Shown here in pieces: positions 43,716 to 57,028 of a stretch of 64,000 nt of DNA. Both the position numbers and the translations under genes were made by a program. The DNA is taken from the NCBI RefSeq assembly GCF_000147815.2, contig NC_015957.1:4092001-4156000 (forward strand). Reading direction: 5' to 3'. The notes under the pieces are model-generated. The model had not been told where the DNA came from and searched no databases. It was given only the letters and a program-made list of their open reading frames with translations. Every line of letters starts with the position of its first letter. Positions within the stretch are counted from its first letter, which is position 1. The stretch comes from Streptomyces violaceusniger Tu 4113 (GTDB taxonomy: Bacteria > Actinomycetota > Actinomycetes > Streptomycetales > Streptomycetaceae).

Positions 43716-46001
43716 TCAGGTGATGGTGAGAGTGCGTCCCCGCTTCGCCAGGGAGCTGTTGCCCGCGAAGACCCGGATCTCGCCCTTCTGCAGCAGAAAC
43801 CTGCCGTGCGGGTCCTGGGTCCAGAAGCCCAGCTCCTCTGCGCTCAACCGGAAGCGGACGGTGGTGGTTTTCCCGGCGCCGAGGCTGACCCGGCGGAAAC
43901 CGCTGAGCCTGCGCACCGGTTGCACGATGCTCGCCACCGGATCGCGGATGTACAACTGCACCACCTCATCGCCCTTGCGGCGCCCGGTGTTGCGCACCGC
44001 CACCGCGACCTCGACGGTGTCGCCCTTGCGCAGCGCCTCGGCCCGGACGCGGCTGACGCTGAGCCGGGGTTCGCCGATGTCGAAGGTGGTGTAGCTGAGG
44101 CCGTGGCCGAAGGGGAACTGGGGCCCGTGGGCCAGGTCCAGATACTTGGAGGTGTAGTGGTTGGCCCGGTCGTAGGGGCGTCCGGTGTTCTCGTGGTTGT
44201 AGTAGATGGGGATCTGCCCGACCGTGCGCGGGAAGGTCACCGGGAGCTTGCCACCGGGGTTCACGGTGCCGAAGAGCACGTCCGCGATGGCGTTGCCGCC
44301 CTCGATCCCCGGATGCCATGCCTGCAGCACGGCGGGGGTGCGGTCCAGCCAGCCGCCCATCGTCAGCGGACGTCCGCTGAGCAGCACCACCACGAACGGC
44401 GCGCCGGTGTCCGCGATCGCGGTGATCAGCCGCTCCTGCCGGCCGGGCAGGCCGAGGTCGCTGCGTACCGACGCCTCCCCGCTGAGCGTCGCCGCCTCCC
44501 CGACCACCACCACGGTCACATCGGTCGCCCTGGCCGCCGAGGCCGCCCGGGCGATGCCCCGGGTGCTCCGGCCGGACGCGTCCACGCCTTCGACATGGCT
44601 GACACTGGCCTTCGGCGCCGCGTCCTTGACCGCGTCCAGGACGGTGACCGGGCGGAACGCGTCGGCCCATGTCCCGGCCCAGGAGCCGCGCAGGTCGGTG
44701 GAGTCGGCGAAGGGCCCGACGACGGCGATGGAGCCCGATCGGTCCAGCGGGAGCGTGGACTTCTCGTTCTTGAGCAGCACCATGGTGCGCCCGGCCGCCT
44801 CGCGCGCCGCCGCCCGGGACGCCTTCGTGGGCCCGGCGATCGCCGTGTCCTCGTCCGCGTAGGGGTGCTCGAAGAGCCCGAGCCGGAACTTCAGGCGCAG
44901 GATACGGGCCACCGCGTCGTCCAGCCGGTCGGTGGTGATCTGCCCGCTGCGCAGCAGCCGCTTGCCGTACTCGTTGATGGTGGTGCTGGCCATCTCCATG
45001 TCGATCCCGGCGTTGAAGGCCAGCCGGGCCGCGTCGGAGCGGTCGGCGGCGTAGCCGTGGACGATCATTTCCTGGACGCCGTTGTAGTCGCTGACGACGA
45101 AGCCGCGGAAGGCCCACTCCTCCTTGAGGATCTCGGTCAGCGCATGCCGGTAGCCGTGCGCGGGGACCCCGCTGACGGTGTTGAAACTCGCCATGACGGT
45201 GGCCACCCCGGCGTCCAGGGCCGCCCTGAACGGGGGCAGGTAGAAGTTGCGCAGCCGGGCCTCGGAGACGTCCACCGTGTTGTAGTCGCGGCCGCCCTCG
45301 ACGCCTCCGTAGGCGATCATGTGCTTGGCGCAGGCCGCGAGGCGATGCCGGGAGCGGAGGTCGTCGCCCTGGTAGCCGCGGGTTTTGGCGGCCGCGAGCG
45401 CCGCCGCCAGATACGGGTCCTCGCCGTCGCCCTCGGCGATCCGCCCCCAGCGCGGTTCATGGGTGACGTCCATCATCGGGGAGAACGCCCAGTGCACACC
45501 GTTGGAGCGGGCCTCCCTCGCCGACACCTCCGCGTCCCACTCGGCCACCGCGGGGTCGAAGGCGGCGGCCTGGCCGAGGGGGATGGGGAAGGTGGTCCAC
45601 ATGCCATGGATGACATCGAGGCCGAAGATCAGCGGAATGCCCAGCCGGGACTTCTCGACGGCCATCCGCTGCAGGGTGTTGGTGGTGCGGGCGCCGTAGA
45701 TGTTGAGCACGGAGCCGAGCCTGCCCCTGCGGGCCGCCTTCTCCGCGGCGGCGGTCTGCCCGCCGCCGGGTCCGGTGTCGCCGGTCCAGGCGAACTGCTG
45801 GAGCTGGCCGAGCTTCTCGTCGATGGTCATCCGCGCCATCAGGGCCCGGATCCTGGTCTCATACGGGCCGGATTCCGGCCCCGGCCGGGGCGCGTCGGAG
45901 GTGGGGGCGGGCGGGGCCTGGGCACGGGCCATCGCGGCCTTGCCCGCGATGGCCGTCCCTCCGGCCGCGGCGAGCACCGTACGTCTGCGCACATCATTCA
46001 T
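43716..46001 (-). CDS. Tat-exported GH3 beta-glucosidase (BglX-like)
   Basis: The 761-residue enzyme has a Tat-type signal (VRRRTVLAAAGGTAIAGKAAMARAQA), the GH3 N-terminal barrel (LIFGLDVIHGMWTTFPIPLGQAAAFDP, SPMMDVTHEPRWGRIAEGDGEDPYL, ACAKHMIAYGGVEGGRDYNTVDVSE) and the nucleophile Asp305 in FVVSDYNGVQEM. The GH3 C-terminal domain (RTMVLLKNEKSTLPLD) and the fibronectin-III-like domain (DEVVQLYIRDPVASIVQPVRRLSGFRRV) follow. It most likely splits beta-linked gluco-oligosaccharides outside the cell. It is divergent from a GntR regulator with a strong palindrome between them. Confidence 0.94.
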   Translation of the reverse strand: MNDVRRRTVLAAAGGTAIAGKAAMARAQAPPAPTSDAPRPGPESGPYETRIRALMARMTIDEKLGQLQQFAWTGDTGPGGGQTAAAEKAARRGRLGSVLNIYGARTTNTLQRMAVEKSRLGIPLIFGLDVIHGMWTTFPIPLGQAAAFDPAVAEWDAEVSAREARSNGVHWAFSPMMDVTHEPRWGRIAEGDGEDPYLAAALAAAKTRGYQGDDLRSRHRLAACAKHMIAYGGVEGGRDYNTVDVSEARLRNFYLPPFRAALDAGVATVMASFNTVSGVPAHGYRHALTEILKEEWAFRGFVVSDYNGVQEMIVHGYAADRSDAARLAFNAGIDMEMASTTINEYGKRLLRSGQITTDRLDDAVARILRLKFRLGLFEHPYADEDTAIAGPTKASRAAAREAAGRTMVLLKNEKSTLPLDRSGSIAVVGPFADSTDLRGSWAGTWADAFRPVTVLDAVKDAAPKASVSHVEGVDASGRSTRGIARAASAARATDVTVVVVGEAATLSGEASVRSDLGLPGRQERLITAIADTGAPFVVVLLSGRPLTMGGWLDRTPAVLQAWHPGIEGGNAIADVLFGTVNPGGKLPVTFPRTVGQIPIYYNHENTGRPYDRANHYTSKYLDLAHGPQFPFGHGLSYTTFDIGEPRLSVSRVRAEALRKGDTVEVAVAVRNTGRRKGDEVVQLYIRDPVASIVQPVRRLSGFRRVSLGAGKTTTVRFRLSAEELGFWTQDPHGRFLLQKGEIRVFAGNSSLAKRGRTLTIT

Positions 46002-46247
46002 GGTCTTTGTCCTGGCCTTCGGCGATCTGTTGTCCCCGAGTCCGAGTTCCTCAAGACCATGCTGGTCACGACCCTGTGCGGGATGCGGGCCGCCACCTTT
46101 GCCGTGGGTCTTCTGCCAACGTACGACAGGATCGGCGTCCGGGCTCCCGGTGCGTCCGGGGCCGTGCGCGCGGGCGCCCTGCTGTCCGCACTGTTTCCGG
46201 GACTGTTCCGCGACTGTTCCGGCGAGGCGCAGGAGGGCGATAATGAA

Positions 46248-46267
46248 GTCAACGGTTAACCGTTGAC
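46248..46267. promoter_or_regulatory. Perfect 20-bp palindrome upstream of the GntR gene
   Basis: GTCAACGGTTAACCGTTGAC is fully symmetric and ends 34 bp before the GntR start, between it and the divergent GH3 gene. GntR/FadR regulators bind symmetric sites of this kind, so autoregulation, and possibly control of GH3, is inferred. Confidence 0.75.
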
Positions 46268-46301
46268 TCGTGCCGGTCCACGCGCCAGAAGGAGCCCGTC
46301 G

Positions 46302-46979
46302 GTGCCCATCACCTCGCTGCAGCAGCGGTCCCTCGGCGATCTGGTCGCGCATGAGCTGCGGGTCCTCATCGTTTCAGGACGGCTGCGCCCCGGCACCCAC
46401 CTTGTCGAAGGGGCCCTCGCCGAGCAGTACGACGTCAGCCGCGGCCCGGTGCGGGACGCGCTGCGTCAGCTCGAGGCCGAGGGGCTGGTCGAGGCGCGCC
46501 GCCGCGGGGTCTTCGTCACCGGGCTCACCGAGGACGACGTCGAGGAGCTCTATACCCTGCGGGAGTCCCTGGAGACGCTCGCCCTCACTCTCGCCATCGG
46601 CCGGGCGGGGCCCGGCGACTGGGAACCCGCCGAGCGCTTCGTGCGGGACATGCGCGACGCCGCGGACCGCGCCGCGGCCGGTGACTTCGCCCTCGCCGAC
46701 CTGGAGTTCCACTCCCAGTTCTATGTGCTCTCCGGACACCGCAGGCTGCTGGCGGTCTGGGAGCAGTACCGCCCCACCTTCGGTGTCATCCTCGACGTCA
46801 CCAACGCCCAGGACGTCGATCTGCGCCCCTTTGCCGGGGCCCATGCCGACCTGCTGGCGACCGTGCGCGCCGGCGATGTCGAGCACGCCGCCACCACCCT
46901 GCGCGAACACCTCCTCGGCGCCAGGAACCGGCTCCGCGCCGCGCTGCGCTCCGCACGAGCGGCGGCCGGCCGGGGGTGA
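46302..46979 (+). CDS. GntR-family regulator with FCD domain
   Basis: The 225-residue protein has an N-terminal winged helix (LGDLVAHELRVLIVSGRLRPGTHLVEGALAEQYDVSRGPVRDALRQLEAEGLVEARRRGVFV). An all-helical FCD sensor domain follows, with ELYTLRESLETLALTLA, LEFHSQFYVLSGHRRLL and the HADLLATVRAGDVEHAATTLREHL segment carrying metal-type His residues. FCD regulators sense small organic acids. GAAGGAG precedes the GTG at 46302. It is divergent from the GH3 gene. Confidence 0.93.
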   Translation: MPITSLQQRSLGDLVAHELRVLIVSGRLRPGTHLVEGALAEQYDVSRGPVRDALRQLEAEGLVEARRRGVFVTGLTEDDVEELYTLRESLETLALTLAIGRAGPGDWEPAERFVRDMRDAADRAAAGDFALADLEFHSQFYVLSGHRRLLAVWEQYRPTFGVILDVTNAQDVDLRPFAGAHADLLATVRAGDVEHAATTLREHLLGARNRLRAALRSARAAAGRG

Positions 46980-47054: not shown

Positions 47055-47825
47055 TCAGGCCTGGCGCTCGTCCATGCCCGCCATCAGCGCCTGGTGGCTC
47101 ATCCGCACATGCTCCCGCATCACCCGCTCCGCGCCGTCGCCGTCCTTGGCCTGGATCAGGTTGAGGACGCGATGGTGCTCGTCGTCGGACTCGTCCAGCC
47201 GGCCGGGCCGGGACAGCGAGGTGCGCACCAGCCGGGCGTAGGCAAGCTGGTTCATCAGGGTGCGGTAGTGCGCCTCCAGCTTGCTGTTGTCCGCGCCCAC
47301 CACGATCAGATCGTGGAACTCGTGGACCAGCGCCGCGTATTGCTCGGCGTCGCCGTTCCGGACGGCCGCGTCGGCCGCCTTCATATTGGCCTCCAGCCGC
47401 TCCACTTCCGGTACGTTCCCGCGGAAGGCGAGCAGCCGGGCGGCGGCGCCCTCCAGCAACTCCTTCATCTGGAACAGCTCGGTCAGCTCGCGCCGGGACG
47501 GTACCGCGACAAACGTTCCGACCCGTGGCCGCACCTCGACCAGCCCCTCGATCTGGAGCTGCTTGAGGGCCTCGCGGATGGGTGTCCGGCTGACGCCGAA
47601 GGTCTCGGACAGTGCCATCTCGGAAAGGCTGGAGCGGGGCGGCAGTTCACCACTGATGATCATCTGCCGCAGCTCTTCGGCGACCCTCGCCTGCATGCTG
47701 GTCTGCTGAAGCCGCTTTCCGGTGGGTTGTTGCATGGCACGAGACCCTAGAGGCGGCCGTCGCACCTCGTCAACTGAGGCGTCGGAGGAGAGATCCACCG
47801 AAGATGCGCTCGGGTGTTGTGCCAT
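47055..47825 (-). CDS. GntR-family regulator of the catabolic cassette
   Basis: The 256-residue protein has a GntR winged helix (MQARVAEELRQMIISGELPPRSSLSEMALSETFGVSRTPIREALKQLQIEGLVEVRPRVGTFVAV) and an FCD domain (FQMKELLEGAAARLLAF, LVHEFHDLIVVGADNSKLEAHYRTLMNQL, DEHHRVLNLIQAKDGDGAERVMREHVRMSHQAL). It is the last gene of the minus-strand arm, 30 bp after the aldehyde dehydrogenase. The ATG at 47825 has GAGGAAGGG upstream; it sits inside a TTGT-GCCAT-ACAA palindrome. An alternative ATG at 47735 would leave the palindrome upstream of the gene. Confidence 0.92.
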   Translation of the reverse strand: MAQHPSASSVDLSSDASVDEVRRPPLGSRAMQQPTGKRLQQTSMQARVAEELRQMIISGELPPRSSLSEMALSETFGVSRTPIREALKQLQIEGLVEVRPRVGTFVAVPSRRELTELFQMKELLEGAAARLLAFRGNVPEVERLEANMKAADAAVRNGDAEQYAALVHEFHDLIVVGADNSKLEAHYRTLMNQLAYARLVRTSLSRPGRLDESDDEHHRVLNLIQAKDGDGAERVMREHVRMSHQALMAGMDERQA

Positions 47826-47831
47826 ACAAGA
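47817..47831. promoter_or_regulatory. TTGT-GCCAT-ACAA operator-like site
   Basis: TTGTGCCATACAAGA is a short palindrome at the start of the GntR gene. The core TGCCATACAAGA recurs at 52789-52800 in front of the divergent arm, pointing to a common regulator, most simply the GntR protein encoded here. Confidence 0.65.
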
Positions 47832-47855
47832 ACCCTTCCTCGACCCAAGACCGGA

Positions 47856-49343
47856 TCAGGACTTCAGGATGAAGGGATCCCCGGCGGGCTCCTCACTGAT
47901 GTTGATCCAGACGCTCTTCAGCCGGGTGTACTCCCGGATCACCTCCGTGCCGTGCTCGGTCCCCATCCCGCTGGTCTTGAACCCGGCCCGCGGCGACATC
48001 GGCGACATCGAGCGATAGGTGTTGGCCCACACCGTCCCGGCCTCCAGCCGGGCGGCCATCCGGTGCACCCGGTTCACATCCCGGGTCCACACACCCGCCG
48101 CCAGGCCGTACGCGGAGTCATTGGCGATCGCCAGGGCCTCCTCCTCGGAGCCGAAGGGCATGACGGTCGCGACCGGCCCGAAGATCTCCTCCTGGCAGAT
48201 CCGCATCCCGTTGTCGGTGCCGGTGAAGACGGTGGGGGAGTAGAAGTACCCGTCGAGGCCCGTTTCCGGCCGCCTGCCGCCGCAGACCACCTTTCCGCCC
48301 TCGGCCTGCCCCAGCTCGACATACGACTCGACCTTCTCCAGTTGCTCGGCGAGGGCGAGCGGGCCGAGCTCGGTGGTCTCCTCCAGCGGATCGCCGACGC
48401 GGATCGTGGCCGCCCGCGCCGTCACCCGCTCCAGGACCTCGTCGTACGCCTCCCGGTGGACCAGCACCCGGCTCCCCGCCACACAGGTCTGGCCCGCGGC
48501 CGCGAAGATGCCCGCGATCACCCCCATGGCGGCCGACCCCAGATCGGCGTCCGGGAAGATGATGTTGGGCGACTTACCGCCCAGCTCCAGCGTGCAGCCG
48601 ATCAGCCGGTCGGCGCAGGTACGGGCGATCCGGCGGCCGGTCCCGCTGGAGCCGGTGAAGGTCACCTTGGCCACGGCCTCGTGCTCGGTCAGCGGCGCGC
48701 CCGCCTCCGCGCCGTACCCCGTGACCACATTGACCACTCCCGGCGGGAATCCCGCCTCTTCGAAGAGCGGTGCGAGCGCCAGCAGCGAGGCCGAGGTGTG
48801 TTCCGAGGGCTTGACCACCACCGTGTTCCCCGCGGCCAGGGCCGGGGCCAGCTTGGTGGCGGTGAGCAGCAGCGGGGAGTTCCAGGGGGTGATGGCGCCG
48901 ACCACGCCCACCGGTTCGCGCAGGGTGTAGTTGAGCAGCTCGCGGCCGGCCCCGGGGATCACCTCGCCCTGGATCTTGTCGGCGAGTCCCGCGTAGTAGT
49001 AGAAGTACTCGGGCAGCCCGGCGAGTTGGGCCCGCATCTCCCGCAGCAGCTTGCCGTTGTCGAGGGTCTCGGTACGGGCCAGCCGCTCTGCGTGCTCACC
49101 GATCAGATCGCCGAGGTTCCGCAGCAGCCGCCCGCGCCGGGTCTGGCTCAGATCGCGCCAGCGCGGATCCTCGAAGGCGGTACGGGCGGCGCCCACCGCA
49201 CGGTCCACATCGGCGGCGGTGCCGCGCGCCACCTCGTACCAGGGTTCGGCGGTGGCCGGGTTGACGCTGGCGAAGTAGCCGCCGTCGGCGGGGGCGGTCC
49301 ACTCGCCCGCGATGTAGTGGTCATGGCGCGGCAGAGGGTTCAT
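47856..49343 (-). CDS. NAD(P)-dependent aldehyde dehydrogenase
   Basis: The 495-residue enzyme has the ALDH hallmarks: VGAITPWNSPLLL, NTVVVKPSEHTSASLLAL, FTGSSGTGRRIA, the general base in LELGGKSPNIIF, the catalytic Cys in AGQTCVAGS and EEIFGPVATVMPF. It resembles betaine/semialdehyde dehydrogenases and probably oxidises the aldehyde released after ring or chain cleavage in this pathway. Its ATG at 49343 overlaps the alpha/beta hydrolase stop by 4 bp. Confidence 0.94.
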   Translation of the reverse strand: MNPLPRHDHYIAGEWTAPADGGYFASVNPATAEPWYEVARGTAADVDRAVGAARTAFEDPRWRDLSQTRRGRLLRNLGDLIGEHAERLARTETLDNGKLLREMRAQLAGLPEYFYYYAGLADKIQGEVIPGAGRELLNYTLREPVGVVGAITPWNSPLLLTATKLAPALAAGNTVVVKPSEHTSASLLALAPLFEEAGFPPGVVNVVTGYGAEAGAPLTEHEAVAKVTFTGSSGTGRRIARTCADRLIGCTLELGGKSPNIIFPDADLGSAAMGVIAGIFAAAGQTCVAGSRVLVHREAYDEVLERVTARAATIRVGDPLEETTELGPLALAEQLEKVESYVELGQAEGGKVVCGGRRPETGLDGYFYSPTVFTGTDNGMRICQEEIFGPVATVMPFGSEEEALAIANDSAYGLAAGVWTRDVNRVHRMAARLEAGTVWANTYRSMSPMSPRAGFKTSGMGTEHGTEVIREYTRLKSVWINISEEPAGDPFILKS

Positions 49344-50302
49344 GAGCGGTGGGACTCCTGTCCGGTGTGGGCTCCGGTGTCGGTTCCGGTCTGAGCTCCG
49401 GGGCGGGATCCGGTCTGAGCTCCGGGGTGGGATCCGGAGTGGGATCCGGGGTGGGATCCGGTGTGGGCTCCGGTGTGGGTGAGGATCACGTCGGCGAGTT
49501 CCTGGGGGCACTCCAGCGGCAGCAGATGGCGGGCGCCCGGCAAGATCACCGCCCGGCCGCCGGGGATCCGCCCCGCCAGCCGCTGCGACATGGCCGGGGT
49601 CGAGCCGGGGTCACGCTCGCCGGTCACCGCCACGGTGGGCGCGGCGATGCGGGGCAGCCACCGCCACAGCCCGGTGTCGGCCGTCGCGAAGACCCGGTAA
49701 CACGCGAGGTAGGAGGCCCGGTCGTTGGCCAGCAGCGTGTCGAGCACCCGCTGCGCCAGATCGGGGTCCTGGGCCCGCCAGGCGGGCGAGAACCAGCGGT
49801 CGACCGCCGCCCACGCGGACGCCCCGAAGTCCTCGGCGGCCAGCTCCTGGCGGCGGGCCACCGCCTCCCGTTCCTCCTCCGACCGGCCCGCGACCGAGCT
49901 GACCAGGGTGAGCGAGGCGGTGAGGTCCGGCCGGTCCAGCCCCAGCCGCTGGGCGACCAGGGCCCCGAGCGAGAAGCCGACGATATGCGCGGGTCCGCTC
50001 AGCAGCTCCGCGACATCCTCGGCCAGCTCGGCGAGGGACACCCCGGCCGCCGCGGCCGGGGAGGCGCCGTGGCCACGCAGATCGACCAGCGTCACGCGGT
50101 GCCGGGCGGCCAGCGCGGGCAGACAGCGGTCCCACATGCGGCGGTCGAGGCCCACGCCGTGCAGCAGCACCATGGGCGCTCCCGTGCCATGGGACTCATG
50201 GGCGAGCGCCACCGGTGCCCGGGCCCCCGCCGGGGCCGGCCCGCCGGGAGCGCCCGCCCCCGGTGCCCCGTCGGGAGCCCGCACCGCGTCCATGCCGCTC
50301 AC
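49340..50302 (-). CDS. Alpha/beta hydrolase with repetitive C-terminal tail
   Basis: The 320-residue protein has an alpha/beta-hydrolase fold: PMVLLHGVGLDRRMWDRCLPAL with the oxyanion HG, the nucleophile Ser in VGFSLGALVAQ, an Asp in GERDPGSTP and the catalytic His in PGARHLLPLECP. By position it plays the hydrolase role that RutD or an amidohydrolase has in related pathways; ester, amide or C-C cleavage cannot be distinguished. The C-terminal 45 residues are a His/Thr/Gly/Ser repeat (TGAHTG, SHPGSHSG types) from short DNA repeats at about 49380-49480. The GTG start overlaps the preceding gene by 4 bp. Confidence 0.88.
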   Translation of the reverse strand: MSGMDAVRAPDGAPGAGAPGGPAPAGARAPVALAHESHGTGAPMVLLHGVGLDRRMWDRCLPALAARHRVTLVDLRGHGASPAAAAGVSLAELAEDVAELLSGPAHIVGFSLGALVAQRLGLDRPDLTASLTLVSSVAGRSEEEREAVARRQELAAEDFGASAWAAVDRWFSPAWRAQDPDLAQRVLDTLLANDRASYLACYRVFATADTGLWRWLPRIAAPTVAVTGERDPGSTPAMSQRLAGRIPGGRAVILPGARHLLPLECPQELADVILTHTGAHTGSHPGSHSGSHPGAQTGSRPGAQTGTDTGAHTGQESHRS

Positions 50303-50850
50303 CGCTCCGTCGACAGCGGGGCCAGCCGGGCCTGTGGGCGGCCCTGGGCGGCCGCCGCGAGCCCGATGACGATCTCGTCGGCGCGCGGTCCGTCCGCCAC
50401 CCGGACCTCGATGCTCTGGTGGTGCGAGCGGATGGTGGCGTCGGTGATGTGCTTGAGCGGAATGTCGAAGACCGTCCCCGCGGCGGCCCGCTTCTCCACG
50501 GCCGGCAGCAGAGTGGTCGCGTTCGCCGCCCGGCGGAAGTGGTCGCCGAACTTCAGGGTGTGGATCAGCGCGGAGCCGTGTTCGATCTCCCCGTCGAGCC
50601 CCACGATCGCGGCCTTGCCGTACGCCTCCACCGGCGCGTCCAGCGCCTCGACCACGCGGGGCGCCAGCAACTCGCCCAGCTTCGGCGCCGCCTCGTCGAT
50701 CCCGGGCAGCAGATCCGCCACAAAGCCCTGACCGGCCCAGGGGTTCTCGATGACGGCGAGCACCACCGCCGTACGGGCCGGCGGGTCCACCGGGCGGCCG
50801 CCCTCGCTGTGGATGTCCTCGGTGAAGGTGATGATCTTGCGAATGTTCAC
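50299..50850 (-). CDS. AA_synth-family protein, paralogue 1
   Basis: The 183-residue protein belongs, by my reading, to the 'amino acid synthesis' family (PF06684 type): NIRKIITFTEDIHSEGGRPVDPPARTAVVLAVIENPWAGQGFVADL, VEAYGKAAIVGLDGEIEHGSALIHTLKFGDHFR and IRSHHQSIEVRVADGPRADEIVIGLAAA. Despite the name the family has no proven biosynthetic activity. It is a paralogue of the next gene upstream, with shared ENPWAG/HNPWAG, KAAIVGLDGEIEHG and RADEIVI motifs, and overlaps it by 4 bp (GTGA). Confidence 0.85.
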   Translation of the reverse strand: MNIRKIITFTEDIHSEGGRPVDPPARTAVVLAVIENPWAGQGFVADLLPGIDEAAPKLGELLAPRVVEALDAPVEAYGKAAIVGLDGEIEHGSALIHTLKFGDHFRRAANATTLLPAVEKRAAAGTVFDIPLKHITDATIRSHHQSIEVRVADGPRADEIVIGLAAAAQGRPQARLAPLSTER

Positions 50851-51455
50851 GTCGCAGTCTCCAGGTCGTCCAGATCGGCGAGGCGGATGAGGGGGTCGGT
50901 GGCGCGGTCCCCGATCCGGGCGTTCGGGCGGGGGCCGGACGCCCCGGCCGCGATGACGACGATCTCGTCCGGGCGGGGCGCGTCGGGGATGCGGATCTGG
51001 CAGGTCTGGTAGTGCGAGCGGGTCGCGGCCGCGGTCTTGTGCCACAGCGGCACGGTCAGCGGCTCACCGGCCGGAAGCCGGTCGTCGCTGAAGACGATGA
51101 TCGAGGTGCCCTCGGTCAGCTCGCGGAAGACATTGCCGAAGAAGGGGGTGTGGATCAGCGCGCCGCCGTGCTCGATCTCCCCGTCGAGCCCCACGATCGC
51201 GGCCTTGCCGAAGGACTCGATCCGGTCGACCCCGCCCAGCGCCTCGCTGATCCGGCCGGTGAGCAGCCGGGCCAGCCCCGGTGCGATCCGCTCGACCTCG
51301 GGCCCCAGATCGGCGACGACGCCGCCACCGGCCCAGGGGTTGTGGATCACCGCGGCCGCCGCGACCCGGCGCACCGGCACCGCGACCGGGCGGCCGAGCT
51401 CCAGCATCAGCTCATCGGCGACGGTGACGACCTTGCGCAGCCGCGCCTCAGCCAT
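50847..51455 (-). CDS. AA_synth-family protein, paralogue 2
   Basis: The 202-residue protein is similar to its downstream neighbour: RKVVTVADELMLELGRPVAVPVRRVAAAAVIHNPWAGGGVVADLGPEVE, IESFGKAAIVGLDGEIEHGGALIHTPFFGNVFRELTEGTSIIVFSDDR and TRSHYQTCQIRIPDAPRPDEIVVIAAGASG. Two consecutive paralogues suggest a hetero-oligomer or two related steps. Its start overlaps the end of the monooxygenase gene by 8 bp. Biochemical role unknown; by position a ring-opened or enamine intermediate is a plausible substrate. Confidence 0.85.
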   Translation of the reverse strand: MAEARLRKVVTVADELMLELGRPVAVPVRRVAAAAVIHNPWAGGGVVADLGPEVERIAPGLARLLTGRISEALGGVDRIESFGKAAIVGLDGEIEHGGALIHTPFFGNVFRELTEGTSIIVFSDDRLPAGEPLTVPLWHKTAAATRSHYQTCQIRIPDAPRPDEIVVIAAGASGPRPNARIGDRATDPLIRLADLDDLETAT

Positions 51456-52587
51456 GACCGCCGCCGGTGGTGAACTGCGGCATGACCTTCTCGGCGAACA
51501 GCTCCAGGCTGCGCATCGCGTTGCGGTGCGGCAGACCGGGGTGGGTGGTCCACAGCAGCAGATGCTCCAGACCCACCTCGTCGCGCAGCTCGGCGATCTT
51601 CTCCGAGACGTACTCGGGGGTGCCGACCAGCAGATTGCGCCGCTGGAGGAAGTCGAAGGACAGCTCATGGGCGTCGGTGAGCTCCTCGCCCGCCTCCATG
51701 AGGTTGCCCAGCCCCCGCCAGTGCATGATCCACCGGTAGGTGGTCATCAGCGCCTCTTCGCATTCGGCGCGCGCCTGCTCCATGGTGTCGGCGACATACA
51801 CATCGCGCACCAGGCCGATGCCCTCGCCCAGCGCGTACTCGCGGCCCGCCGCCTGGCTCGCGGTGTCCCGGTAGAGCTCGAACCGCTCCTTGAGCGCGGA
51901 GACCGGCGGCAGCCAGAAGAGCCCCTGGACGCCGTCTGCCGCCGCGGCCTTGATCGAGCGGGGGCTGTCGATGACCTGCCACAGCGGAGGATGCGGCCGC
52001 TGCAACGGAAACGGCGTGACCTGCATCTTCGTGATGACACCGGCCTCGGTGTAGTCCGGGGTGGCGGGGGAGAGCGGGTGGTTCCACTTCACCCCGGGGG
52101 CGGGGAACTCGTAGAAACGGCCCTGGTGCGAGAAGAACTCGCCGCTCCACGCCTTGCGCAGGACCTCCACGGTCTCGTCGTACAGCGCGCGGTTCTGTTC
52201 CTGGTCGCGCGGATCGGCCAGGGCGTTGAGGTTGAGCGCCTCGCGGCCGTACAGCCCCCGGCCGAGACCGACCTCGACCCGGCCCCCCGAGAGCTGGTCG
52301 AGCATCGCGATGTCCTCGGCGAGCCGCAGCGGATGCCAGAAGGTGGCGATGGAGGCCGCCTGGCCGATCCGGATATCCGTCGTACGGGCGGCGATGTCCG
52401 CCCCCATCAGCACCGGGTTCGGGGTGATCTCGATCGCCTCGTGCCCGAAGTGGTGCTCGGTGTACCACGTGGACCAGAAGCCCGCCCGGTCCGCGGTGAC
52501 CGCGAACTCCCGGGCCTCCGCCATGACGTCGGCGTACTCGCCGAGGCGGCCCGGGGCACCGAGGTTGTGAAATATCGAAAAGCGCAT
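51448..52587 (-). CDS. LLM-class flavin-dependent monooxygenase
   Basis: The 379-residue protein is a luciferase-like two-component monooxygenase: MRFSIFHNLG, FWSTWYTEHHFGHEAIEITPNPVLMGADIAARTTDIRIGQAASIATFWHPLRLAEDIAMLDQLSGGRVEVGLGRGLYGREALN, PHPPLWQVIDSPRSIKAAAADGVQGLFWLPP and GTPEYVSEKIAELRDEVGLEHLLLWTTHPGLP. It needs reduced flavin, which the flavin reductase fusion on the divergent arm can supply. It is the first gene of the minus-strand operon and probably performs the initial oxidative attack, by analogy with RutA. The ATG at 52587 is preferred to one 13 codons upstream. Confidence 0.92.
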   Translation of the reverse strand: MRFSIFHNLGAPGRLGEYADVMAEAREFAVTADRAGFWSTWYTEHHFGHEAIEITPNPVLMGADIAARTTDIRIGQAASIATFWHPLRLAEDIAMLDQLSGGRVEVGLGRGLYGREALNLNALADPRDQEQNRALYDETVEVLRKAWSGEFFSHQGRFYEFPAPGVKWNHPLSPATPDYTEAGVITKMQVTPFPLQRPHPPLWQVIDSPRSIKAAAADGVQGLFWLPPVSALKERFELYRDTASQAAGREYALGEGIGLVRDVYVADTMEQARAECEEALMTTYRWIMHWRGLGNLMEAGEELTDAHELSFDFLQRRNLLVGTPEYVSEKIAELRDEVGLEHLLLWTTHPGLPHRNAMRSLELFAEKVMPQFTTGGGHG

Positions 52588-52820
52588 GCAGCGTCCGTCC
52601 TGTTCTTCCGGCTCACGCTGTGCCATGGCAGGGAGGCTAGGAGTCCGATTCTGGCTCCGTCAAGGGCTGCGATCGAGGCAACTACTTTTGACCTGTGTCT
52701 TTGCTGTTCGGACGGGTCTTGTAGGCCCTTTTCCGCTTCATTCATCCCTAGGTGTTGACAGCGACTGATGCCCCTTCCTACGGTCCTCTGCCATACAAGA
52801 GCTGAGTGAGGGAAGACGTC
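52588..52820. promoter_or_regulatory. Divergent promoter region of the catabolic cassette
   Basis: This AT-richer 233-bp gap drives both arms. For the plus arm, TTGACA (52755-52760), an 18-bp spacer and TACGGT (52779-52784) make a good housekeeping promoter. The element TGCCATACAAGA (52789-52800) overlaps the expected transcription start and repeats the site at 47817-47831, as expected for a repressor operator. Confidence 0.7.
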
Positions 52821-53738
52821 ATGACGCACACTCTTGACCGCACCGCCCGCATCCGCTCCACCTGGCAGGCCGTCTGGGACCAGGGCCAGGTCGACGCGCT
52901 CGACCAGTTGCTCAGCCCCGGCTATGTACGCCGACGCGGTCCCGCCGCGGCCGCCCAGGACCGAGAGCAGTTCAAGGAGTCGGTCCGCGCCATCCGCCGG
53001 GCCTTTCCCGATCTCCATACCGAAATCGAGGAGATCGTCGAGGAGGGTGAATCGCTGGCGATCCGCTGGCGCAGCACCGGCAGTCACACCGGCGACTTCC
53101 TCGGCGTGCCGGCCACCGGCAGGCCGGTCGAAGTCTCCGGCGCCACCTTCACCCGCTTCGACCACGGTGTGGTCAGCGAGGAGTGGGTGACCTGGGATCC
53201 CCGGCAGTTGCTGGAGGCGCTCGGGATCATCACCACCACCCAGCGAGCGGCAGTCGACGCCGATCTGGTCCGTGGGGTGCACCGTAAGTTCATCACCGGT
53301 GTCACCGTCGTGACCTGCCAGGACGACGGCAAGCCCCGAGGTCTCGCGGTGAACGCGTTCGCCAGCATCTCGCTGGATCCGCCGATGGTGCTGGTCTGCG
53401 TGCAGCGCACCTCCACCACCCACCCCGCGCTGCACCGGGCCGGCCATCTGGGGATCAACATCCTCGCCGCCGGCCAGCTCGACGTGGCCAAGACCTTCGC
53501 CTCCAAGGCGGACGACAAGTTCGCCGGGCTTGCCTGGACCCCAGGGGAGTTCGGTGCCCCGCTGATCGACGGGTCCTGCGCCCAGCTCGAGGTGGAGATC
53601 GGCGAGCGGCTGGAGGCCGGCAGCCACACCGTCTTCACCGGCCGGGTGGTCTCCGCCCGCCATGCGGAGCTGGCCCCGCTCGTCTACAGCGGCGGCGGTT
53701 TCTTCGACATCTCGCAGACCGCGCCGCTGCCGTGGTGA
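52821..53738 (+). CDS. SnoaL-like domain fused to flavin reductase
   Basis: The 305-residue protein joins two domains. Residues 1-140 are SnoaL/ester-cyclase-like (TWQAVWDQGQVDALDQLLSPGYVRR, FPDLHTEIEEIVEEGESLAIRWRSTGSHTGDFLGVPATGRPVEVSGATFTRFDHGVVSEEWVTWD). Residues 150-305 are an FMN-binding split-barrel flavin reductase (VRGVHRKFITGVTVVTCQDDGKPRGLAVNAFASISLDPPMVLVCVQRTSTTHPAL, HLGINILAAGQ, DGSCAQLEVEIGERLEAGSHTVFTGRVVSA). The reductase half resembles RutF/HpaC and should feed the LLM monooxygenase encoded divergently. The fusion is unusual. GAGGGAAG precedes the ATG at 52821. Confidence 0.9.
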   Translation: MTHTLDRTARIRSTWQAVWDQGQVDALDQLLSPGYVRRRGPAAAAQDREQFKESVRAIRRAFPDLHTEIEEIVEEGESLAIRWRSTGSHTGDFLGVPATGRPVEVSGATFTRFDHGVVSEEWVTWDPRQLLEALGIITTTQRAAVDADLVRGVHRKFITGVTVVTCQDDGKPRGLAVNAFASISLDPPMVLVCVQRTSTTHPALHRAGHLGINILAAGQLDVAKTFASKADDKFAGLAWTPGEFGAPLIDGSCAQLEVEIGERLEAGSHTVFTGRVVSARHAELAPLVYSGGGFFDISQTAPLPW

Positions 53739-53811
53739 GAGGCCGCCGCCCGGATCCGTACGCCCACCGGTCCCCCCTGACGTCCACTCCTCCCGTCCCA
53801 GGAGCACGCCC

Positions 53812-55239
53812 ATGACCCACGACGACACGGCGCCGGTGTACGGCAGCGCGGTCACCAAGGTGGAGCCCTTCGGGGTCGACCACATCCCCGACAACGAGCG
53901 GCACGGCAAACCCAGTTCGCAGTTCTTCGTCTGGTTCGCCGCCGGTCTCAACTTCCCCATCATCCTGCTCGGGTTCAGCGCGGTCGGGCTCGGTCTCAGC
54001 TTCGGCGGCGCCGTCGCCGCGATCGTGGCCGGCGCGGGTCTCGGCTCGCTGCTGATGGCCGTGATGTCCCGGATGGGCGTACGGCTGGGGGTGCCCCAGC
54101 AGATCCAGGCGCGTGGTCCGCTCGGCTTCTTCGGCAACTTCCTGCCGGTGGCGTACATCAATGTGTTCGCCGGGGTCGGCTGGGCGGCCGTCACCGTGAT
54201 CCTCGGCGGCAAGGCCATCGCCGAGCTGACCCATCTGCCCTTCTGGGTCTGTGGGTTGACGCTCACCCTGGTCGAGCTGGTGGTGTCCATCTACGGCTAC
54301 AACATGATCAATTTCCTGCAGCGGGTGCTGACCTATGTGCTCACCCCGCTGTTCGTCATGATCACGGTGGTGGCCCTGGTGCGGGGCGCGGGCACCTTCG
54401 GCGCCGATCCGAAGGCACCGGACTACGTGGGCTCCACCGGTGGCTGGATCACCTTCGGCGGCTGGTTCCTCTCCTTCCTCGTCGCCTGGGCGCCGTTCGC
54501 CTCGGACTACTCGCGCTATCTGCCCGACTCGCCACGCGTGGTGCGCCGCACCGCCTGGTACACCGGGCTCGGCAACTTCGTCACCATCTGCTGGCTCGGC
54601 ATCCTCGGTGTGCTCCTCGGCTCCAACGCCTCCAGCACCGACTCCATCACCGCCCTGCACGAGCTGACCGGGCCGTTCGCCATCCCCGCCCTGATCGCCA
54701 TCGGGCTCTCGGCGCTCGCGCAGAACTTCCTCAACGTCTACGGCGGCGCGATCTCCGTCCAGACGCTGAAGGTGCCGGTCACCCGGACCCAGGCCGTCAC
54801 CCTCATCTGCGCGCTGGCGTACGGGATCAGCCTGTGGGGACACTCCGGGATCGAGGACAAGTTCTCGGTGTTCCTCAACCTCACCGCGTACTTCATCGCG
54901 CCGTTCGCCACCGTGCTGCTGCTCGACTACCACCTGGGCGGCCGCTCCGACCCCAGCCGGATCGCGGAGCTTTACGACCGTGGACGGGTGCTCTCCTGGG
55001 GCTTCGTCGCCTGGGCCGGCGGGGTGGTGGCCTCGGTGCCGTTCTGGCAATCCGACCTGTACACCGGGGCGTTCGCCTCGGCGTATCCGCACGCGGGCGA
55101 TCTGAGCATGTTCGTCGCCGCGGCCGCCGCCGCGGTGCTCTATCTGCTGACCTACCGGCTGCGGCCGCTGTGGACGCGCGATGTCCCCGCCACGCCCGGG
55201 CCCCGGCCGGAGAAGACGGCGGCGGTGGCGGGCTCCTGA
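53812..55239 (+). CDS. NCS1-family nucleobase/hydantoin-type permease
   Basis: The 475-residue membrane protein has about twelve helices and the NCS1 pattern: QFFVWFAAGLNFPIILLGFSAVGLGLSFGGAVAAIVAGAGLGSLLMAVMSRMGVRLGVPQQIQARGPLGFFGNFLP, WAPFASDYSRYLP and LNVYGGAISVQTL. Relatives carry cytosine, purines, allantoin or hydantoins with Na+ or H+. It sits 73 bp behind the flavin-reductase fusion in the same arm and is the best clue that the pathway substrate is a small N-heterocycle. AGGAG precedes the ATG at 53812. Confidence 0.92.
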   Translation: MTHDDTAPVYGSAVTKVEPFGVDHIPDNERHGKPSSQFFVWFAAGLNFPIILLGFSAVGLGLSFGGAVAAIVAGAGLGSLLMAVMSRMGVRLGVPQQIQARGPLGFFGNFLPVAYINVFAGVGWAAVTVILGGKAIAELTHLPFWVCGLTLTLVELVVSIYGYNMINFLQRVLTYVLTPLFVMITVVALVRGAGTFGADPKAPDYVGSTGGWITFGGWFLSFLVAWAPFASDYSRYLPDSPRVVRRTAWYTGLGNFVTICWLGILGVLLGSNASSTDSITALHELTGPFAIPALIAIGLSALAQNFLNVYGGAISVQTLKVPVTRTQAVTLICALAYGISLWGHSGIEDKFSVFLNLTAYFIAPFATVLLLDYHLGGRSDPSRIAELYDRGRVLSWGFVAWAGGVVASVPFWQSDLYTGAFASAYPHAGDLSMFVAAAAAAVLYLLTYRLRPLWTRDVPATPGPRPEKTAAVAGS

Positions 55240-55332
55240 CCTCCCGGCAGTGCAGGGCCCGGGGCGGGCGGCGTCGCTACGGCGTCGCCCGCCGCCGAGT
55301 TGGGGCCCTCATCCGGCACTAGGATGCGGTGG

Positions 55333-55935
55333 ATGGCGGCAGAAGCGGGGGACGACGACAAGGCGCTGGAGCGGATCATCGCGGTCCGGGCGCGGGAGTA
55401 CCGGCAGGCGGCCGGGGCGTCGGTCGGTGGGATGGCCCAGCGGGTGGGCATCTCCAAGGCCATGCTGTCCAAGATCGAGAACGCCCAGACCGCCTGCAGC
55501 CTCACCACCCTCTCCCGGCTCGCGCGCGGCCTGGGCGTGCCCGTCACCGCGCTTTTCCGCGGGATGGACGACGAGCGCGAGGCGGTCTTCGTCCCGGCCG
55601 GCCACGGCGCCCGCATCGTGCGCCGCGGCACCCGGATCGGCCATGAGTACGCCCTGCTCGGAGCCCTGCGCGGCAGCAACAAGCGGATGGAGGCGCTGGA
55701 GGTCACCCTCACCGAGTCCAGCGAGGTGTTCCCGCTCTTCCAGCACGGCGGCACCGAGCTGATCTACATGCTCGAGGGCGTCATGGTCTACGGCCACGGC
55801 AAGTCCAGCTACACGCTGGGGGCCGGTGACGCGCTTCAGTTCGACGGCGAGGCGCCGCACGGCCCGGAGAAGCTGATCACCCTGCCCATACGGTTCCTGA
55901 CCGTGACGGCCTTCGGCGACACCCCGCACCACTGA
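55333..55935 (+). CDS. XRE-cupin transcriptional regulator
   Basis: The 200-residue protein has an HTH-XRE domain (IIAVRAREYRQAAGASVGGMAQRVGISKAMLSKIENAQTACSLTTLSRLARGLGVPVTALF). A cupin sensor follows, with FPLFQHGGTELIYMLEGVMVYGHGKSSYTLGAGDALQFDGEAPHGPEKL. XRE-cupin proteins commonly control uptake and catabolic genes by binding a small ligand in the cupin barrel. It lies about 90 bp after the NCS1 permease on the same strand, giving the cassette a second regulator besides GntR. Confidence 0.92.
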   Translation: MAAEAGDDDKALERIIAVRAREYRQAAGASVGGMAQRVGISKAMLSKIENAQTACSLTTLSRLARGLGVPVTALFRGMDDEREAVFVPAGHGARIVRRGTRIGHEYALLGALRGSNKRMEALEVTLTESSEVFPLFQHGGTELIYMLEGVMVYGHGKSSYTLGAGDALQFDGEAPHGPEKLITLPIRFLTVTAFGDTPHH

Positions 55936-55960: not shown

Positions 55961-56455
55961 CTACCGCCTCCGGCGGGAGGACGCCGGGCGCTCGGCGGGG
56001 GCGGGGTCGATACAGCGCGACTGGGCGTGTTCGTAGACCATCGTGCTCTGCACATCCGCCACCTCGCGGCGCTCGGTGAGGCGGTCGATGACGAACGCGT
56101 ACAGCCCATTGGTGTCCGGCACCGCCACATGGATGAGGAAGTCATGGGCGCCGGAGGTGACGAACAGGCCGATGGTCTCCGGTAGCTGGGCGGCCCATTC
56201 CCGGAAGCCCTCGATGACCGGCCGGGACGGCGGGCGGATCCGCACCGAGATCAGCGCCTGGACGGGGCGGCCGACCGCCTCCAGATCGACGGCGGCGTGA
56301 TAGCCGCTGATGATGCCGCGCTCCCGCAGCGCCCGGACCCGCTCCAGGGAGGTCGACGGCGAGACCCCCGTCCGCTGGGCCAGCTCGCGATTGGTCTGGC
56401 GTGCATCGTTCTGCAGCTCCCGCAGAAGAGCGCGGTCGAGTGCATCAAGTTCCAC
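55961..56455 (-). CDS. Lrp/AsnC-family transcriptional regulator
   Basis: The 164-residue protein has an AsnC helix-turn-helix (LDALDRALLRELQNDARQTNRELAQRTGVSPSTSLERVRALRERGIISGYHAAVDLEAVG) and a RAM-type ligand domain (VQALISVRIRPPSRPVIEGFREWAAQLPETIGLFVTSGAHDFLIHVAVPDTNGLYAFVIDRL). AAAGGAG precedes the GTG at 56455. It is divergent from the DUF2000 gene and likely regulates it; an amino acid is the expected effector. Confidence 0.93.
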   Translation of the reverse strand: MELDALDRALLRELQNDARQTNRELAQRTGVSPSTSLERVRALRERGIISGYHAAVDLEAVGRPVQALISVRIRPPSRPVIEGFREWAAQLPETIGLFVTSGAHDFLIHVAVPDTNGLYAFVIDRLTERREVADVQSTMVYEHAQSRCIDPAPAERPASSRRRR

Positions 56456-56489
56456 GAATGCGCTCCTTTGCCTGAGGAAATTCGGCGGG

Positions 56490-56505
56490 CCGTGCCACTG
56501 CACGG
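56490..56505. promoter_or_regulatory. Inverted repeat between Lrp and DUF2000 genes
   Basis: CCGTGC-CACT-GCACGG is a perfect 6-4-6 inverted repeat midway between the divergent starts and a candidate Lrp-binding site. Confidence 0.5.
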
Positions 56506-56563
56506 ATGGATGGGTACCGTCCACCACATCCACCACATTAGCCATCGACAAGGAGTGCCGCTC

Positions 56564-57028
56564 GTGTCCGTTCCCCAGCTGACCGACGAGGATGTCCGCA
56601 CCGATCAGTCCACCCGGCAGGCGAAGCTGAAGTGGGTGATCGTCGTGGCCGAGGAACTGCCGGCGGGCCGGGCGGTGAACGCCGCCGCCTGCATGGCCGC
56701 CGCCGTCGGCCGGGCGATGCCGGAGCTGCTGGGGCCGGACGGCCGGGACGGGTCCGGCGCCGGCCACCCGGGGCTGCCGTGGGCCGGCTGCTCGATCCTG
56801 GTCGCCGGCCCCGAGACGCTGCGCGAGCTGCGCGCGAAGGCCGCCGGGAAGGACGACATCTTCCTCGTCAACATGCCCGGGCAGGCCCAGACGTCACGGG
56901 TCTACGACGAGTACCTCGACAGCCTGGCCGGTACCAAGACCGAGGACCTCGACTATCTCGCGCTCAGCCTCGTCGGCCCGCGGAACAGGGTGAGCAAGCT
57001 CATCGGGAAGCTGCCTCTGCTGCGCTGA
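56564..57028 (+). CDS. DUF2000 protein
   Basis: The 154-residue protein matches DUF2000: KLKWVIVVAEELPAGRAVNAAACMAAAVGRAMPELLG, LPWAGCSILVAGPETLRELRAKAAGKDDIFLVNMPGQAQTSRVYDEYLDSLAGTKTEDLDYLALSLVGPRNRVSKLIGKLPLL. The family has a peptidyl-tRNA-hydrolase-2-like fold but unknown function. AAGGAG precedes the GTG at 56564. Its 3' end overlaps the convergent reductase gene by 29 bp. Control by the divergent Lrp protein is likely. Confidence 0.88.
   Translation: MSVPQLTDEDVRTDQSTRQAKLKWVIVVAEELPAGRAVNAAACMAAAVGRAMPELLGPDGRDGSGAGHPGLPWAGCSILVAGPETLRELRAKAAGKDDIFLVNMPGQAQTSRVYDEYLDSLAGTKTEDLDYLALSLVGPRNRVSKLIGKLPLLR

What the first reader, a model, noticed from the sequence alone, without database searches (positions are those of the whole stretch)
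47055..55935. Divergent LLM-monooxygenase / AA_synth / NCS1 catabolic cassette of unknown substrate
Seen: one strand encodes LLM flavin monooxygenase, two AA_synth paralogues, alpha/beta hydrolase, aldehyde dehydrogenase and GntR, with overlaps of 8, 4, 4 and 4 bp. The divergent arm encodes a SnoaL-flavin reductase fusion, an NCS1 permease and an XRE-cupin regulator. Known: the Rut uracil pathway uses an LLM monooxygenase (RutA), flavin reductase (RutF), alpha/beta hydrolase (RutD) and nucleobase permease (RutG), and actinobacterial pyridine degradation uses flavin-dependent ring cleavage followed by aldehyde dehydrogenase and hydrolases. Inference: this is a self-contained ring-opening pathway for an N-heterocycle or nucleobase-like compound, in which the AA_synth pair replaces RutB/RutC-type steps. 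I know of no described pathway with this exact parts list.
Basis: partly seen in the sequence, partly recalled or inferred. Interest (0 to 1): 0.82.

Follow-up and report, generated by a model that had tools for sequence, protein, structure and literature searches.

The report
Pyridinium-type ring-opening catabolic gene cassette
A Streptomyces gene set that probably breaks open and consumes a small nitrogen-ring compound such as the plant and marine metabolite trigonelline; it resembles a known pathway part for part, except that its ring-opening enzyme comes from a different branch of the same enzyme superfamily.

Summary
The core LLM–AA_synth–α/β-hydrolase–ALDH is a conserved unit: 76 of the 80 best loci with this LLM keep that order, in Actinomycetota, Bacillota and SAR11, and three more are cut by contig ends. 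Within these 80, the AA_synth pair is actinobacterial. The Rut analogy does not hold. A closer parts list is published: the trigonelline (tgn) pathway with ring opener TgnA/B, SSADH TgnE and DUF1185 homologue TgnF; tgn-like clusters lie on Sinorhizobium pSymA and an Acinetobacter plasmid. The window shares ALDH, hydrolase, AA_synth pair, GntR and flavin reductase with actinobacterial cassettes that carry a tgn-type LLM (and NCS1 with one of them), yet its own LLM is only 28–29% identical to that type. The head enzyme was swapped while the rest stayed (ALDH tree, AU p=0.0013). Best reading: a variant tgn-type route opening trigonelline or a close pyridine carboxylate. Substrate is inferred, not shown. 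Not filed as tgn, because the defining oxygenase differs.

The parts
51448..52587 (-). LLM flavin-dependent oxygenase, 'type B' (379 aa), with an insertion of about 30 residues relative to tgn-type LLMs; proposed ring opener
   Evidence: PF00296 170.5 bits; AF2 model mean pLDDT 81.6, LLM fold, best PDB match RslO1 7bip; insertion seen in alignment
50847..51455 (-). AA_synth (DUF1185) copy 1
   Evidence: PF06684 194.5 bits; keeps BB2672 E90,E92,H93,H98,G102,H144,R172,R176; H174 is N
50299..50850 (-). AA_synth (DUF1185) copy 2, the better conserved copy (77 against 50 invariant columns in 26 rows each)
   Evidence: PF06684 204.9 bits; same residues kept, H174 is Q
49340..50302 (-). alpha/beta hydrolase, proposed TgnD-like hydrolase of the ring-opened N-formyl intermediate
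   Evidence: PF12697 2e-24; 50% to A. dokdonellae, 30% to S. meliloti cluster copy
47856..49343 (-). aldehyde dehydrogenase, proposed TgnC-like
   Evidence: PF00171 585 bits; 68% to A. dokdonellae, 48% S. meliloti, 46% A. venetianus cluster copies
47055..47825 (-). GntR/FCD regulator, probably of the cassette
   Evidence: PF00392+PF07729; a GntR of 40% or more lies in 37 of 39 actinobacterial and 28 of 31 Bacillota loci
52806..53738 (+). SnoaL-flavin reductase fusion, proposed FMNH2 supplier (TgnB role)
   Evidence: PF07366 + PF01613; 48% over both domains to A. dokdonellae copy
53812..55239 (+). NCS1 permease, proposed substrate importer
   Evidence: PF02133; 58% to A. dokdonellae copy, 24% to A. 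venetianus copy
55300..55935 (+). XRE-cupin regulator, loosely linked; may not belong to the unit
   Evidence: HTH + Cupin_2; 5 of 39 actinobacterial loci
52588..52805 (.). divergent intergenic region between the two arms
   Evidence: coordinates

Best explanation
A tgn-type catabolic cassette. NCS1 imports a small pyridine-ring compound, most likely trigonelline (N-methylnicotinate) or a close pyridine(-ium) carboxylate. The SnoaL-flavin reductase supplies FMNH2. The type-B LLM opens the ring with O2 to an N-formyl aldehyde. ALDH oxidises the aldehyde. The alpha/beta hydrolase, helped by the AA_synth proteins, breaks the N-formyl enamine acid to formate, amine, CO2 and a C4 semialdehyde, and an SSADH encoded elsewhere in the genome finishes. 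Shown: gene content, conservation, and that the LLM is the part that differs between the window type and actinobacterial cassettes with a tgn-type LLM. Inferred: substrate, reaction order, role of AA_synth and of SnoaL. The intermediates are recalled from the trigonelline pathway, not read in a call.
For: Passages say TgnA/TgnB opens the trigonelline ring (PMC8269262) and that TgnF, homologous to a DUF1185 protein, stimulates TgnE-dependent succinic semialdehyde oxidation (PMC7913881). S. meliloti pSymA has GntR-AAs-ABH-FR-LLM-ALDH-NIPSNAP-ABC transporter-SSADH; a reference title places trigonelline catabolism genes on pSym (Goldmann 1991, seen as a reference entry). An Acinetobacter plasmid has AAs-ABH-FR-LLM-ALDH-NCS1. 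The A. dokdonellae plasmid carries the window's cassette (without XRE-cupin) plus SSADH and riboflavin kinase, but with a tgn-type LLM. That cassette and three micrococcal type-B cassettes share ALDH 77-84%, AAs2 78-80%, NCS1 70-86%, GntR 65-76%, yet LLM 27-28%. In the ALDH and ABH trees of 39 chosen loci the seven type-A actinobacterial rows group with the micrococcal type-B rows (type-B actinobacterial ALDHs as one clade rejected, AU p=0.0013). The Brevibacillus type-B cassette sits beside an ABC transporter whose binding protein is 58% identical to the S. meliloti cluster's (one locus only). The own genome has an SSADH 59% identical to that of A. dokdonellae.
Against: The window LLM is only 28-29% identical to tgn-type LLMs, so its substrate may differ. 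No SSADH in the window cassette. ABH is only about 30-32% to the proteobacterial copies. The A. baylyi ADP1 tgn proteins were not available, so calling the type-A LLM tgn-type rests on parts list and host genus. Window NCS1 is only 24% to the Acinetobacter one. AA_synth is not specific to the pathway: of 12 fetched non-tandem AA_synth loci in the class, 11 showed no LLM hit, and a Bosea plasmid has AA_synth beside hydrolase and ALDH with no LLM annotated within 10 kb. The S. meliloti-like transporter (58%) was seen at 1 of the 100 loci compared; elsewhere 30-34% or none. Types A and B never co-occurred in 392 Streptomyces genomes (14 each), but 0.5 is expected by chance, so this is uninformative.
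Confidence: 0.55

Rival explanations
1. Homarine (N-methylpicolinate) cassette: the type-B LLM opens the 2-carboxy isomer and the cassette leads towards N-methylglutamate, as may be the case in the homarine pathway reported in 2026.
For: Type-B cassettes occur in SAR11, and homarine is an abundant marine metabolite (PMC8269262 passages). A homarine pathway exists in print and involves Mgd (passage and citation in PMC13390433). A different LLM could reflect the isomer: PMC8269262 argues TgnA/B is unlikely to take homarine.
Against: SoxD, a subunit family of N-methylglutamate dehydrogenase-type and sarcosine oxidase enzymes (recalled), is missing in 5 of 5 Bacillota type-B genomes and in 6 of the 16 genomes tested (16 chosen by hand). 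Actinobacterial type-A and type-B cassettes share ALDH, hydrolase and, in Micrococcaceae, NCS1, which argues for the same product. The homarine paper could not be read.
Confidence: 0.2
2. Another pyridine (pyridine itself, nicotinate or N-methylnicotinamide), by the same chemistry.
For: A cytosine/purine-type permease also serves a 4-hydroxypyridine cluster in Arthrobacter (PMC7356986 passages). A Bacillota type-B locus (L061) adds an isochorismatase whose best NCBIfam matches, far below cut-off, are RutB and biuret hydrolase; it could be an amidase.
Against: No amidohydrolase in the window cassette, which pyridine pathways are recalled to use.
Confidence: 0.15
3. Rut-like pyrimidine or nucleobase pathway.
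For: Same broad families: LLM, flavin reductase, alpha/beta hydrolase, permease.
Against: RutF and RutD models far below cut-off; no RutB/RutC domains found; ALDH and AA_synth have no Rut counterpart (recalled).
Confidence: 0.03
4. Non-heterocyclic or non-pyridine substrate such as an aromatic or lactone; DUF1185 also occurs in a 7-hydroxycoumarin cluster.
For: HcdD is a DUF1185 protein induced by 7-hydroxycoumarin. The best structural match of the LLM model is RslO1 of Streptomyces bottropensis.
Against: The passages read of that cluster name no LLM, ALDH or NCS1 gene.
Confidence: 0.07

Closest known systems
Trigonelline pathway tgnABCDEF of Acinetobacter baylyi ADP1 (Perchat 2018; paper not held, known from passages and recall)
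   Same: LLM oxygenase + flavin reductase, ALDH and alpha/beta hydrolase (family names recalled for ADP1, seen in tgn-like plasmid clusters), DUF1185/AA_synth, SSADH in the genome
   Different: LLM of another subfamily (28-29% to tgn-type LLMs), two AA_synth copies, SnoaL domain in front of the reductase instead of a C-terminal extension, SSADH not in the cassette
Arthrobacter dokdonellae pDCT5 cassette (L005) and six unnamed actinomycete cassettes (L120-L125)
   Same: AAs1-AAs2-ABH-ALDH block, GntR and a flavin-reductase homologue in all seven (SnoaL domain checked by Pfam, and NCS1 seen, in L005 only)
   Different: tgn-type LLM at the 3' end instead of type-B LLM at the 5' end; tautomerase gene found in six of the seven
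Sinorhizobium meliloti pSymA cluster (L007)
   Same: GntR, AA_synth, ABH, flavin reductase, LLM, ALDH
   Different: single AA_synth, tgn-type LLM, ABC transporter and SSADH
Rut pyrimidine pathway
   Same: broad enzyme families
   Different: profile scores far below cut-off, no RutB/C found
kpi 4-hydroxypyridine cluster of Arthrobacter IN13
   Same: cytosine/purine-type permease, FadR-family regulator, alpha/beta hydrolase
   Different: FAD-binding monooxygenase and amidohydrolase-type dioxygenase instead of an LLM

Membership tests
tgn trigonelline pathway | Ring-opening LLM of the TgnA type | tested here: not met
   28-29% to the tgn-type LLMs compared; long separating branches in the tree. 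ADP1 TgnA itself was not at hand
tgn trigonelline pathway | Flavin reductase partner (TgnB) | tested here: met
   PF01613 domain, but with a SnoaL N-terminal domain; the three proteobacterial copies scanned have none
tgn trigonelline pathway | ALDH (TgnC) and alpha/beta hydrolase (TgnD) | tested here: met
   ALDH 46-48%, ABH 30-32% to S. meliloti/A. venetianus copies; compared with tgn-like clusters, not with ADP1 itself
tgn trigonelline pathway | DUF1185 protein (TgnF) | tested here: met
   two PF06684 genes
tgn trigonelline pathway | SSADH (TgnE) in the cluster | tested here: not met
   none in the cassette; 59% homologue of the A. dokdonellae SSADH elsewhere in the genome
tgn trigonelline pathway | Growth on trigonelline | not testable with these tools
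   needs culture work
Rut pathway | RutF and RutD equivalog scores | tested here: not met
   71.4 vs 254.75 and 50.4 vs 238.5 bits
Rut pathway | RutB (isochorismatase) and RutC (RidA-like) | tested here: not met
   no such domain in the cassette genes
Rut pathway | RutA-type LLM | tested here: inconclusive
   no RutA among the 25 shown of 31 NCBIfam families
PF06684 (DUF1185) | Conserved salt-bridge and His residues of BB2672 | tested here: met
   both window copies keep E90,E92,H93,H98,G102,H144,R172,R176; H174 is N and Q in the window, and varies in the family set (residues named in PMC2954203)
homarine pathway | hom gene set | not tested
   paper not held

The most novel reading that the evidence does not exclude
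One downstream cassette (AA_synth pair, hydrolase, ALDH, reductase, permease, regulator) is served by two far-diverged LLM ring openers that have replaced each other in closely related actinobacteria, and the type-B LLM is an undescribed ring-opening oxygenase for a different pyridinium isomer, shared by Streptomyces, Bacillus and SAR11.
Probability: 0.35. Interest if true: 0.65.

Novelty: new variant of a known kind. Interest (0 to 1): 0.45.

Why it matters
It gives a named chemical hypothesis for a cassette found in soil actinobacteria, bacilli and SAR11 whose genes carry only family-level names in the records seen. It also offers a natural experiment (same cassette, two LLMs) to test what sets the substrate of ring-opening LLM oxygenases and what the long-unexplained DUF1185/AA_synth family does.

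Tried and rejected
Rut analogy: rejected on profile scores. Mutual exclusion of type A and type B in Streptomyces as evidence of shared function: 14, 14 and 0 of 392, but the expectation is 0.5, so not used. SoxD as a homarine marker: mixed, 10 of 16 genomes. NCS1 of Acinetobacter as a substrate clue: only 24% to the window's. Plasmid search with the window LLM: 3 records, all Peribacillus, 32.7%, so no type-B cassette there. SAR11 neighbours: divergent EutA/DoeA-like and Pot-like ABC genes in L084, different neighbours in L083; no clear substrate clue. Looking for an Arthrobacter pyridine plasmid under a recalled accession: not in the collection. Structure search of the LLM listed only LLM-fold relatives among the 50 rows shown. 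Literature searches; no paper in these lists describes this type-B cassette or an AA_synth pair, as far as titles, abstract starts and the passages read show.

Papers: PMC2954203 read in parts 1-3 of 5; PMC7913881, PMC7356986, PMC13390433, PMC12093977 (reference entries only), PMC8269262 and PMC9151330 seen as passages. Perchat 2018 and the 2026 homarine paper were not seen; what I say of TgnC, TgnD and the intermediates is recalled.
Full report
OBSERVATION. From the sequence, LLM 51448-52587, AA_synth-1 50847-51455, AA_synth-2 50299-50850, hydrolase 49340-50302 and ALDH 47856-49343 overlap by 8, 4, 4 and 4 bp on the minus strand, with GntR 47055-47825 behind. The divergent arm is SnoaL-flavin reductase 52806-53738, NCS1 about 53812-55239 and XRE-cupin 55300-55935 (start possibly 55324). 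The host genome has 11.1 Mb; the nearest named LLM is from Streptomyces niphimycinicus, 98%. The two AA_synth genes are the only PF06684 matches in the genome.

CONSERVATION. The LLM is sporadic: besides the own genome, 1 of 196 sampled genomes of the class reached 1e-50, and that match was only 34% identical; in the genus it occurs in 14 of 392 genomes, own included, at 1e-100. A scan of named genomes, limited to contigs matching two conserved motifs, kept the 80 best of 347 relatives. In these the order LLM-AA_synth(-AA_synth)-hydrolase-ALDH holds in 37 of 39 Actinomycetota, 30 of 31 Bacillota and 9 of 10 Pelagibacteraceae loci. Of the exceptions, L011, L013 and L089 end at a contig end, and in L079 the hydrolase lies upstream. 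In L081 a thiamine-pyrophosphate enzyme gene stands between LLM and AA_synth. Two AA_synth genes are seen in 38 of the 39 actinobacterial loci (the other is cut off); the other two groups show one. GntR (40% or more) is in 37 of 39 actinobacterial and 28 of 31 Bacillota loci; FR (45% or more) in 31 of 39, NCS1 (50% or more) in 26 of 39 and XRE (60% or more) in 5 of 39 actinobacterial loci; all three of GntR, FR and NCS1 in 21 of 39. The Bacillus locus L061 carries an FMN reductase of another family, a riboflavin kinase, a second ALDH, an isochorismatase and an NCS1.

THE KNOWN PATHWAY WITH NEARLY THIS PARTS LIST. [quoted passage not shown] PMC8269262 states that TgnA/TgnB opens the aromatic ring of trigonelline. 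The original paper is not held. tblastn on plasmids found AA_synth in 388 records and, with the S. meliloti LLM, 326 records. Tgn-like clusters read: S. meliloti pSymA GntR-AAs-ABH-FR-LLM-ALDH-NIPSNAP-ABC-SSADH, Acinetobacter venetianus AAs-ABH-FR-LLM-ALDH-NCS1 with GntR across the start of the circular record, Mesorhizobium jarvisii, Falsirhodobacter and Leisingera. A Bosea plasmid has AAs, ABH and ALDH but no LLM annotated within 10 kb. The LLMs of these clusters (type A) are 68% (Sm-Av), 50% (Sm-Ad) and 41% (Sm-Mj) identical to each other but 28-29% to the window's. A reference title in PMC12093977 places trigonelline catabolism genes on the R. meliloti pSym.

THE SWAP. Arthrobacter dokdonellae pDCT5 carries SSADH, riboflavin kinase, NUDIX, NCS1, SnoaL-FR, GntR, AAs1, AAs2, ABH, ALDH, tautomerase and a type-A LLM. 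In the class sample 27 of 394 genomes have AA_synth, 26 over the cut-off; nine have a tandem pair. All nine have an LLM in the cassette, type B in three (own, G208, G368) and type A in six (L120-L125) (window). Against micrococcal type-B loci L037, L038 and L040, the A. dokdonellae cassette has ALDH 77-84%, AAs2 78-80%, AAs1 63-67%, ABH 47-59%, NCS1 70-86%, GntR 65-76%, but LLM 27-28%. In the ALDH tree (39 rows; part of the printed tree was cut) the seven type-A actinobacterial rows and the four micrococcal type-B rows form one group (support 100) among type-B rows, with A. dokdonellae next to L038 and L040 (support 95); in the ABH tree the same eleven rows group (support 99) within an actinobacterial clade; in the LLM tree the two types are far apart. 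Holding the 19 type-B actinobacterial ALDHs together is rejected, p-AU 0.0013, quick tree. These trees used 39 chosen loci, not all held. Type A lies at the 3' end and type B at the 5' end, so this is gain and loss rather than in-place replacement. Among the 80 type-B loci the only separate type-A-like LLM hits were two at 27% (L042, L046).

SUBSTRATE. Two points favour the same or a nearly identical substrate for both types: the shared permease (Micrococcaceae), ALDH and regulator, and the Brevibacillus type-B cassette beside an ABC transporter 58/46/49/48% identical to that of the S. meliloti type-A cluster (binding protein, two permeases, ATPase). The latter is one locus of 100 compared; SAR11 loci and L043 have a binding protein of only 30-34%. 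The own genome has an SSADH 59% identical to that of A. dokdonellae, about 280 kb from the cassette. Against: the LLMs differ greatly, and type B has an inserted loop of about 30 residues, with W, H, P, S, P invariant in the 16 rows of alignment A1, though the SAR11 row lacks one P. The homarine rival is real. A homarine pathway involving Mgd is in print but not held, and SAR11 carries type B. SoxD is present in 10 of 16 type-B genomes tested and absent in the five Bacillota among them; in the own genome it lies about 2.8 Mb from the cassette.

AA_SYNTH. Both window copies keep the residues that PMC2954203 names at the hexamer interface and His cluster (E90, E92, H93, H98, G102, H144, R172, R176) except H174 (N and Q). 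That paper found hexamers and suggested amino-acid metabolism. A mixed hexamer of the two copies is a guess. AA_synth is wider than this pathway: 11 of 12 fetched non-tandem loci showed no LLM hit.

MECHANISM. FMNH2 from the fusion reductase, O2-dependent ring opening by the LLM, aldehyde oxidation, then hydrolysis and decarboxylation of the N-formyl enamine acid: this follows the trigonelline pathway as recalled. None of these steps is shown here. The SnoaL domain may sense the substrate or act on the lactone/aldehyde intermediate (guess).

VERDICT. A real, conserved catabolic unit; a variant of a known kind (tgn-like), with an exchanged oxygenase. Substrate trigonelline or a close pyridine carboxylate; confidence 0.55.

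Noticed in passing
window 39123-39485 (-): A further weak LLM-type match (37% over about 122 residues to the S. meliloti cluster LLM), about 7.5 kb beyond the GntR end of the cassette.
   Followed up: no
window 46263-46979 (+) and 43716-46352 (-): A second GntR/FCD regulator beside a divergent-strand GH3 glycosidase just beyond the cassette; looks unrelated.
   Followed up: no
window 55961-57968: Lrp/AsnC regulator (-), DUF2000 (+) and a PanE-like reductase (-) next to the XRE-cupin end.
   Followed up: no
L084 3393-9860: In a SAR11 genome the type-B operon is divergent from EutA-like, DoeA-like and Pot-type ABC transporter genes; L083 has other neighbours.
   Followed up: partly
L081 11083-12870: A thiamine-pyrophosphate enzyme gene sits between the LLM and AA_synth in one SAR11 locus.
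   Followed up: no
L025 and L032; G616: Streptomyces sporangiiformans has two type-B cassettes (LLM 91% and 76%); G616 has two type-B LLM matches.
   Followed up: no
L007 11446-12381, L010 1927-2868: Proteobacterial tgn-type flavin reductases have about 150 C-terminal residues without a Pfam match, where the A. dokdonellae and window ones have an N-terminal SnoaL domain.
   Followed up: partly
NZ_CP077849.1: A 3.66-Mb Acinetobacter baumannii record is filed as a plasmid; its size suggests a chromosome.
   Followed up: no
L062: A Staphylococcus xylosus genome carries the single-AA_synth type-B cassette.
   Followed up: no
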